From assembly GCA_020724945.1 (NCBI GenBank), contig DYFX01000003.1, positions 1 through 36,223 on the forward strand: a stretch of DNA of 36,223 nt, read 5' to 3'. This stretch comes from Candidatus Paceibacter sp. GTDB taxonomy: Bacteria > Patescibacteriota > Patescibacteriia > SG8-24 > DYFX01. Below the pieces are notes generated by a model that was given only the letters and a program-made list of their open reading frames with translations, was not told where the DNA came from and did not search any database. Position numbers and translations under genes: made by a program. Shown piece after piece: positions 6,720 to 36,223 of the stretch; positions within the stretch are counted from its first letter, which is position 1; every line of letters starts with the position of its first letter.

Positions 6720-8534
<1,815 letters not shown>

Positions 8535-11894: not shown

Positions 11895-14369
<2,475 letters not shown>

Positions 14370-22012: not shown

Positions 22013-23818
<1,806 letters not shown>

Positions 23819-23825
23819 GGAAGAC

Positions 23826-23860
23826 GACGGCCGCCCTTGACGGGGCGGCCGTCTTGCGTT
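23826..23860 (+). terminator. Terminator hairpin with -35-like loop TTGACG
   Basis: GACGGCCGCCC-TTGACG-GGGCGGCCGTC then TTGCGTT. Confidence 0.7.
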
Positions 23861-23882
23861 CTGCTGTCATGCAGGAGGAAGC

Positions 23883-24410
23883 ATGAGACGGAAACCGAAG
23901 ACGCCCGAAGGGATGATCGTCGCCGCCACGACGCGCGAGGAACCGCCGCCGCGGCCCGATCCGACCGACACGCTCGCATGCGTCGGGGAGTCGGGCTGGA
24001 AGGTGAAGTTCGCCTGCGGTCACAAGGCGCCGAGGCGGTTCAAGATCGATTTCTACGGCGAGGTGCGCGAACCCGCCAAGGAGGTCCTCAAGCGGCGCGA
24101 GCGCTGCGGCCCGTGCGCCGCGGCATGGCTGAAGGACATCTCCATCCGCTGCGCGCTCTGCGGCTGCGCCATCCTCCCGGGCGAAGGCGTCGCGGCGTAT
24201 GCCGACGATCCTTCCTACAAGGAGGCGTGGAAGACGCGCATCGGCTCGGACAAGGACGGCGTCCTCGGATGCATGGGGTGGGACTGCTGCCCCTCCGGCG
24301 GCTTCTTCGCCGGACACTGGACGCTGGACGGGTTCCGCCCGGCCTACGCCCACGGCTCGGCCATGTCCGAGGCCATCGCCACCGGCAAGCCCGTCATCGG
24401 CAACGCCTGA
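23883..24410 (+). CDS. Cys-rich putative zinc-binding hypothetical protein
   Basis: SD CAGGAGGAAGC; CGH, CGPC, CALCGC and CMGWDCC clusters. Confidence 0.75.
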   Translation: MRRKPKTPEGMIVAATTREEPPPRPDPTDTLACVGESGWKVKFACGHKAPRRFKIDFYGEVREPAKEVLKRRERCGPCAAAWLKDISIRCALCGCAILPGEGVAAYADDPSYKEAWKTRIGSDKDGVLGCMGWDCCPSGGFFAGHWTLDGFRPAYAHGSAMSEAIATGKPVIGNA

Positions 24411-25812: not shown

Positions 25813-25842
25813 AAGGCGGCCTTGACTGAAGGCCGCCTTTTT
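25813..25842 (+). terminator. Terminator hairpin with TTGACT in the loop region
   Basis: AAGGCGGCC-TTGACTGAA-GGCCGCCTTTTT. Confidence 0.85.
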
Positions 25843-25898
25843 GGTTCAGTGGACGCAGTCTCGCCCTTCCGACCCGATCCACCTGCCAGGAGGATACG

Positions 25899-36201: not shown

Positions 36202-36223
36202 CGCCTCCCTTGACGGGGAGGCG
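36202..36223 (+). terminator. Hairpin after trxB with loop TTGACG (T-tract beyond window)
   Basis: CGCCTCCC-TTGACG-GGGAGGCG. Confidence 0.6.

What the first reader, a model, noticed from the sequence alone, without database searches (positions are those of the whole stretch)
23826..23882. Terminator loop is a -35 box: CCC-TTGACG-GGG after typA
The 11-bp perfect stem (GACGGCCGCCC/GGGCGGCCGTC) after typA exposes exactly the hexamer TTGACG (23837-23842) as its loop. TTGACG is also a -35 used by free-standing promoters in this window (19431, 9875). The 17-nt spacer then consists of the 3' stem plus tail, leads to TCTGCT (23860-23865), and is followed by a strong SD and the Cys-rich ORF at 23883. 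One ~60-bp element may therefore be both the typA terminator and the promoter of the next gene. RNA and DNA roles would be physically coupled, because the same bases form the RNA loop and the sigma-contact site. The poor -10 (3/6) is the weak point.
Basis: partly seen in the sequence, partly recalled or inferred. Interest (0 to 1): 0.72.

Follow-up and report, generated by a model that had tools for sequence, protein, structure and literature searches.

The report
Terminator loop doubling as promoter -35
In a small-genome bacterium of the Patescibacteria, the hairpin that ends one gene's message often carries in or around its loop the exact DNA letters that help start the next gene, so one roughly 60-base stretch seems to be both stop and start signal; the copy reported behind typA is real but is one of the weaker examples on the promoter side.

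Summary
The genome (1.07 Mb, 66% GC, Patescibacteria) has very clean promoters: TTGAC-N18-TANNNT 162 times, reversed control 1. In this species and a congener, hairpins with a T-run span the -35 more often than in shuffles. In those 16, chosen without looking downstream, similarity to TATAAT peaks at exactly 17 nt. Some elements are kept in the congener with paired stem changes while TTGAC and the -10 stay (clearest before bL25). At typA the congener keeps a hairpin with TTGAC in the loop, but the -10 is poor in both species (TCTGCT, TCTCCT), may instead be the arm of a hairpin over the ribosome-binding site, and the U-tract here is weak. Verdict: a real, recurring terminator/promoter fusion; the promoter half at this locus is unproven. 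No transcript data exist.

The parts
22013..23818 (+). typA/bipA, 601 aa, upstream gene
   Evidence: ORF; TypA/BipA C-terminal domain and GTP-binding domain in Pfam; 90% identical in the congener
23826..23853 (+). hairpin: 11-bp perfect stem with TTGACG as loop; inferred terminator of typA
   Evidence: fold z -4.7; orthologous hairpin of about 14 bp in the congener
23837..23842 (+). TTGACG, loop and candidate -35
   Evidence: TTGACG-N17-TANNNT 62 times in the genome, control 0; TTGACA in the loop of the congener
23854..23862 (+). weak U-tract TTGCGTTCT
   Evidence: not accepted by the T-run criterion
23860..23865 (+). TCTGCT, candidate -10 at spacer 17; alternatively part of the 5' arm of a small hairpin next to the SD
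   Evidence: background P 0.008 with the genome's own matrix; folds
23873..23878 (+). AGGAGG Shine-Dalgarno sequence
23883..24410 (+). Cys-rich ORF, 175 aa, downstream gene; order typA - this ORF - proS kept in the congener
   Evidence: proS domains
25813..25850 (+). second element of the same kind in the window, behind proS: hairpin AAGGCGGCCTT-GACTG-AAGGCCGCCTT, T-run, TTGACT-17-TTCAGT
36202..36223 (+). third hairpin with TTGACG loop: CGCCTCCC-TTGACG-GGGAGGCG, cut by an assembly gap right after the window's end

Best explanation
The element behind typA belongs to a recurring class of fused terminator/promoters in this Patescibacteria genus. In RNA, the hairpin plus T-run ends the upstream transcript; in DNA, TTGAC in or at the loop is the -35 of a sigma70-type promoter, the 3' arm and T-run are its 17-nt spacer, and the -10 follows directly. 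The existence of the class is shown by sequence statistics and conservation; termination and initiation themselves are inferred from textbook anatomy. At typA itself the promoter half is probably weak: good -35, correct spacing, poor -10, with the terminator part kept in the congener.
For: 162 strict promoters against 1 control. Fused examples with all parts, e.g. L311:2443 before bL25. 12 promoters with an enclosing hairpin of -16 kcal/mol or better and T-run vs 2.3 in shuffles; in the congener, on blindly chosen stretches, 9 vs 1.6 at -14. TTGAC at loops 16/210 with a co-directional gene, 0/140 without. -10 similarity peaks at spacer 17 in terminators selected without it: 3.31 matches vs 1.06 and 1.19 at 16 and 18. 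Paired stem changes with loop and -10 kept. Conserved TTGAC loop at typA.
Against: At typA: no A at position 2 of the -10 in either species; weak U-tract here. Several elements are not fused in the congener. High GC alone produces many hairpins (null 6.7 of 19 at -12). No transcript data.
Confidence: 0.72

Rival explanations
1. At typA the hairpin is only a (leaky) terminator; TTGACG in its loop is a relic or chance, and the Cys-rich ORF is read from typA read-through.
For: Poor -10 in both species although the genome's promoters are strict; weak U-tract in this genome.
Against: TTGAC kept in the loop in the congener, where the U-tract is strong and no other promoter is visible in the gap; TCTGCT at exactly 17 nt has background P 0.008.
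Confidence: 0.4
2. The conserved TCTNCT is not a -10 but the 5' arm of a small hairpin that covers the Shine-Dalgarno sequence, so that read-through messages are poorly translated.
For: Congener: CTCCTG-TGTG-CAGGAG perfect stem over the SD; window: CTGC/GCAG next to it in the longer fold.
Against: In the window the short leader folds otherwise; z only about -2; it does not exclude a -10 role for the same bases.
Confidence: 0.3
3. The fusions are mere economy of space: stop, terminator and promoter pile up in short gaps, without any functional coupling.
For: Median co-directional gap (of at least 20 bp) 83 bp; -10 boxes often follow terminators closely in three of the four genomes; the stop codon lies inside the -35 at some sites.
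Against: Nothing here speaks against it; shuffles exclude chance overlap but not economy.
Confidence: 0.6
4. TTGAC is favoured in loops because C-UUGAC-G makes a stable RNA loop, independent of promoters.
For: CUUG-type loops are known to be stable (own knowledge).
Against: 0/140 in terminators without a co-directional gene after them; -10 signal at exactly 17 nt.
Confidence: 0.04

Closest known systems
Intrinsic (rho-independent) terminator
   Same: GC-rich stem, short loop, T-run, right after a stop codon
   Different: TTGAC in or at the loop, a -10 directly behind the T-run
sigma70-type promoter
   Same: TTGACN, 17-nt spacer, TANNNT in most copies
   Different: spacer made of a terminator's 3' arm and T-run; at typA the -10 is poor
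RNAP recycling and reinitiation after intrinsic termination (PMC6978380, PMC11347151)
   Same: links a terminator to a promoter nearby; efficiency said to depend on their distance
   Different: shown in vitro with E. coli RNAP on separate terminators and promoters; overlap of the two is not described in the passages read
Clostridium saccharoperbutylacetonicum sol operon / Assolrna (PMC9402939)
   Same: the Assolrna terminator overlaps a promoter region, and a predicted terminator stem loop is drawn on the Assolrna promoter
   Different: one sense/antisense pair, not a recurring co-directional element with the -35 as loop

Membership tests
Intrinsic terminator (typA site) | stable GC-rich stem with short loop after the stop codon | tested here: met
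Intrinsic terminator (typA site) | U-tract behind the stem | tested here: inconclusive
   TTGCGTTCT, weak; strong in the congener's orthologue
Intrinsic terminator (typA site) | transcripts end there | not testable with these tools
   no transcript data
sigma70-type promoter (typA site) | -35 close to TTGACA | tested here: met
   TTGACG, common -35 of this genome
sigma70-type promoter (typA site) | spacer of 16-18 nt, 17 in this genome | tested here: met
   17 nt to TCTGCT
sigma70-type promoter (typA site) | -10 of the form TANNNT | tested here: not met
   TCTGCT; background P 0.008 with the local matrix. Therefore not filed as a proven promoter
sigma70-type promoter (typA site) | transcription start | not testable with these tools
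   no 5'-end data
Fused terminator/promoter class (defined here) | hairpin plus T-run enclosing the -35 more often than in shuffles | tested here: met
Fused terminator/promoter class (defined here) | TTGAC at loops only where a co-directional gene follows | tested here: met
   16/210 vs 0/140, p=0.0002
Fused terminator/promoter class (defined here) | stem pairing kept through paired changes while TTGAC and -10 stay | tested here: met
   clear for bL25; partial for L313/L340; two species only, no formal covariation test

The most novel reading that the evidence does not exclude
The fused element is a relay: a polymerase that terminates in the T-run already sits within the spacer of the next promoter, keeps or regains sigma, slips back a short way and restarts on the loop's -35, so that neighbouring genes are transcribed in series without a shared message.
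Probability: 0.12. Interest if true: 0.85.

Novelty: new variant of a known kind. Interest (0 to 1): 0.6.

Why it matters
Terminators and promoters are usually annotated as separate parts. Here the same bases appear to serve as RNA loop and as sigma contact, repeatedly and with signs of selection, in a phylum for which I found no transcript-end maps. It gives an annotation rule for such genomes (promoters hide inside terminators, at times with the stop codon inside the -35), and a natural system for asking whether polymerase restarts where it has just terminated.

Tried and rejected
A perfect-stem test with the loop forced onto the -35 gave few hits because stems with mismatches or larger loops were missed; thermodynamic tests replaced it. 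The first gene-finder run chose antisense ORFs; it was reseeded with known genes. Origin as copies of a mobile repeat rejected: stem sequences differ between elements. Phylum scan: this genome leads 382 (9 vs 0 control) and most others have 0 or 1, so the CC-TTGACR-G form is not a phylum-wide hallmark. Ten genomes of other phyla: 3 matches vs 7 in the control. Before bL25, relatives outside the genus show no clear fusion. Paper searches found no description of this architecture (empty results), in an open-access library only.

Full report
What is there. The window lies in a 1.07 Mb, 91-contig genome. Its nearest named relative is CP129476.1, 'Patescibacteria group bacterium isolate cMAG.20' (TypA 90% identical), which matches G001, a genome of the same genus and the same length. 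Seven nt after the typA stop codon stands GACGGCCGCCC-TTGACG-GGGCGGCCGTC, then TTGCGT, TCTGCT, AGGAGG and the ATG of a 175-aa Cys-rich ORF without Pfam family. The fold is far more stable than shuffles.

Is TTGACG a -35 in this organism? By sequence statistics, yes. TTGAC-N18-TANNNT occurs 162 times, the reversed pattern once; TTGACG-N17-TANNNT 62 times against 0. In G001 the first pattern gives 169 against 11. Against such strict promoters the -10 at typA, TCTGCT, stands out as poor. A matrix learned from the hexamers 17 nt after intergenic TTGAC gives it a background probability of 0.008; the congener's TCTCCT has 0.07 with its own matrix.

Is the typA case isolated? No. CC-TTGACG-G followed by N14-16 and TANNNT occurs 8 times in the genome, control 0. 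Among 113 strict promoters at hand, 39 have a T-run in the spacer and 27 of these a hairpin abutting it, for example CCCGCCCC-TTGACG-GGGGCGGGC TTTGTTTG TATCAT (before bL25), GACCGCGCC-TTGACG-GGCGCGGTC TTTCGTCT TACGGT, GGCGCCCC-TTGACG-GGGCGCC TTTTCGGTCG TATGCT. Hairpins arise easily in GC-rich DNA, so shuffles matter: with a hairpin of -16 kcal/mol or better enclosing the -35, 12 observed against a mean of 2.3 (maximum 5 of 60 shuffles); at -12, 19 against 6.7. The 113 are not a random draw, since loci fetched for TTGACG promoters are among them. The G001 stretches were chosen blindly and give 12 against 2.95 at -12 and 9 against 1.6 at -14.

In stretches of four Patescibacteria (this genome, G001, G025, G088), terminators were called from stem and T-run alone. 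TTGAC lies in or within 6 nt of the loop in 5/51, 8/119, 2/27 and 1/13 of those followed by a co-directional gene, and in 0/31, 0/71, 0/24 and 0/14 of those that are not: 16/210 against 0/140, Fisher p=0.0002. In the 16, matches to TATAAT average 3.31 at spacer 17, against 1.06 and 1.19 at 16 and 18. A loop kept only for RNA stability would show neither. Gene calls come from a home-made finder, so the class labels carry some error, and the typA hairpin of this genome is not itself among the 16 (its orthologue in G001 is).

Conservation. For 24 elements I looked for the orthologous gap in G001 stretches. The element before ribosomal protein bL25 (Pfam L25p) keeps TTGAC, the 17-nt spacing and TATCAT, while stem pairs change on both sides. 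The element before a DHH-family protein (L222/L339) keeps stem and promoter, with TAAGGT/TATTGT. That before an ABC-transporter membrane domain (L313/L340) has a rewritten stem with one mismatch. L311:652 keeps a fusion with a large loop. At typA the congener has a long hairpin with TTGACA in its loop. Others (L324, L307, L305, L055, L201, window 25822) are not clearly fused in G001, so the class turns over. Outside the genus the bL25 gap shows no clear fusion.

The typA site. For a promoter: TTGAC in the loop in both species, right spacing, a start codon 46 nt on from the -35 (others lie 35-189 nt away), order typA - Cys-rich ORF - proS kept, and no other promoter seen in the gap. Third codon positions of typA are 72% identical between the two species, so five kept bases are weak evidence alone. 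Against: no A in the -10 in either species, a weak U-tract here, and TCTNCT can pair next to the ribosome-binding site (strongly in G001, CTCCTG-TGTG-CAGGAG; weakly here). My judgement: about even odds for a working promoter here, about 0.8 for a terminator, about 0.85 that the fused class is real.

How it may work. Shown: overlap, statistics, conservation. Inferred: termination and initiation themselves. A terminating polymerase stops in the T-run, which is inside the spacer of the next promoter. In vitro work shows that E. coli RNAP often stays on DNA after releasing RNA, often with sigma, and can restart at nearby promoters; its authors expect the effect to depend on terminator-promoter distance (PMC6978380). 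Most E. coli and all B. subtilis termination sites surveyed lie within about 1 kb of a start site (PMC11347151). Whether overlap makes a relay or is mere economy of space cannot be told from sequence.

Novelty. Both parts are standard. Their recurring fusion, with the -35 as loop, is a new variant as far as an open-access library shows. Ten genomes of other phyla show no excess of the pattern, and this genome leads 382 Patescibacteria.

Noticed in passing
L055:8160(+), L039 (minus-strand position 12746), L041:10090(+); G001: L168, L182, L186: The TGA inside TTGAC is the stop codon of the upstream gene, so stop codon, terminator hairpin and -35 lie on the same bases.
   Followed up: partly
window 25813-25850: A second element of the kind behind proS, TTGACT-17-TTCAGT with an 11-bp stem and T-run; not kept in the congener.
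   Followed up: partly
window 36202-36223 and L003: A third hairpin with TTGACG loop ends at an assembly gap (run of N), so its -10 cannot be read.
   Followed up: no
L049 (minus-strand position 7230) and G001 L180:17090: A strong hairpin directly upstream of a TTGACA promoter, similar in both species (z -3.7 and -5.7); terminator or operator.
   Followed up: no
L048:11737: Palindrome AAAAGTGTCA-AGACCT-TGACACTTTT over a -35, operator-like rather than terminator-like.
   Followed up: no
G000:C21:7059 and G001:C1:164973: Promoter spacers contain TTAGCACTC, the half-site of the CIRCE heat-shock operator as I recall it.
   Followed up: no
window 23883-24410; L300, L301, L302: Cys-rich protein family without Pfam match, found in 4 of 13 relatives; in G001 and G005 the frame begins with a hydrophobic stretch.
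   Followed up: partly
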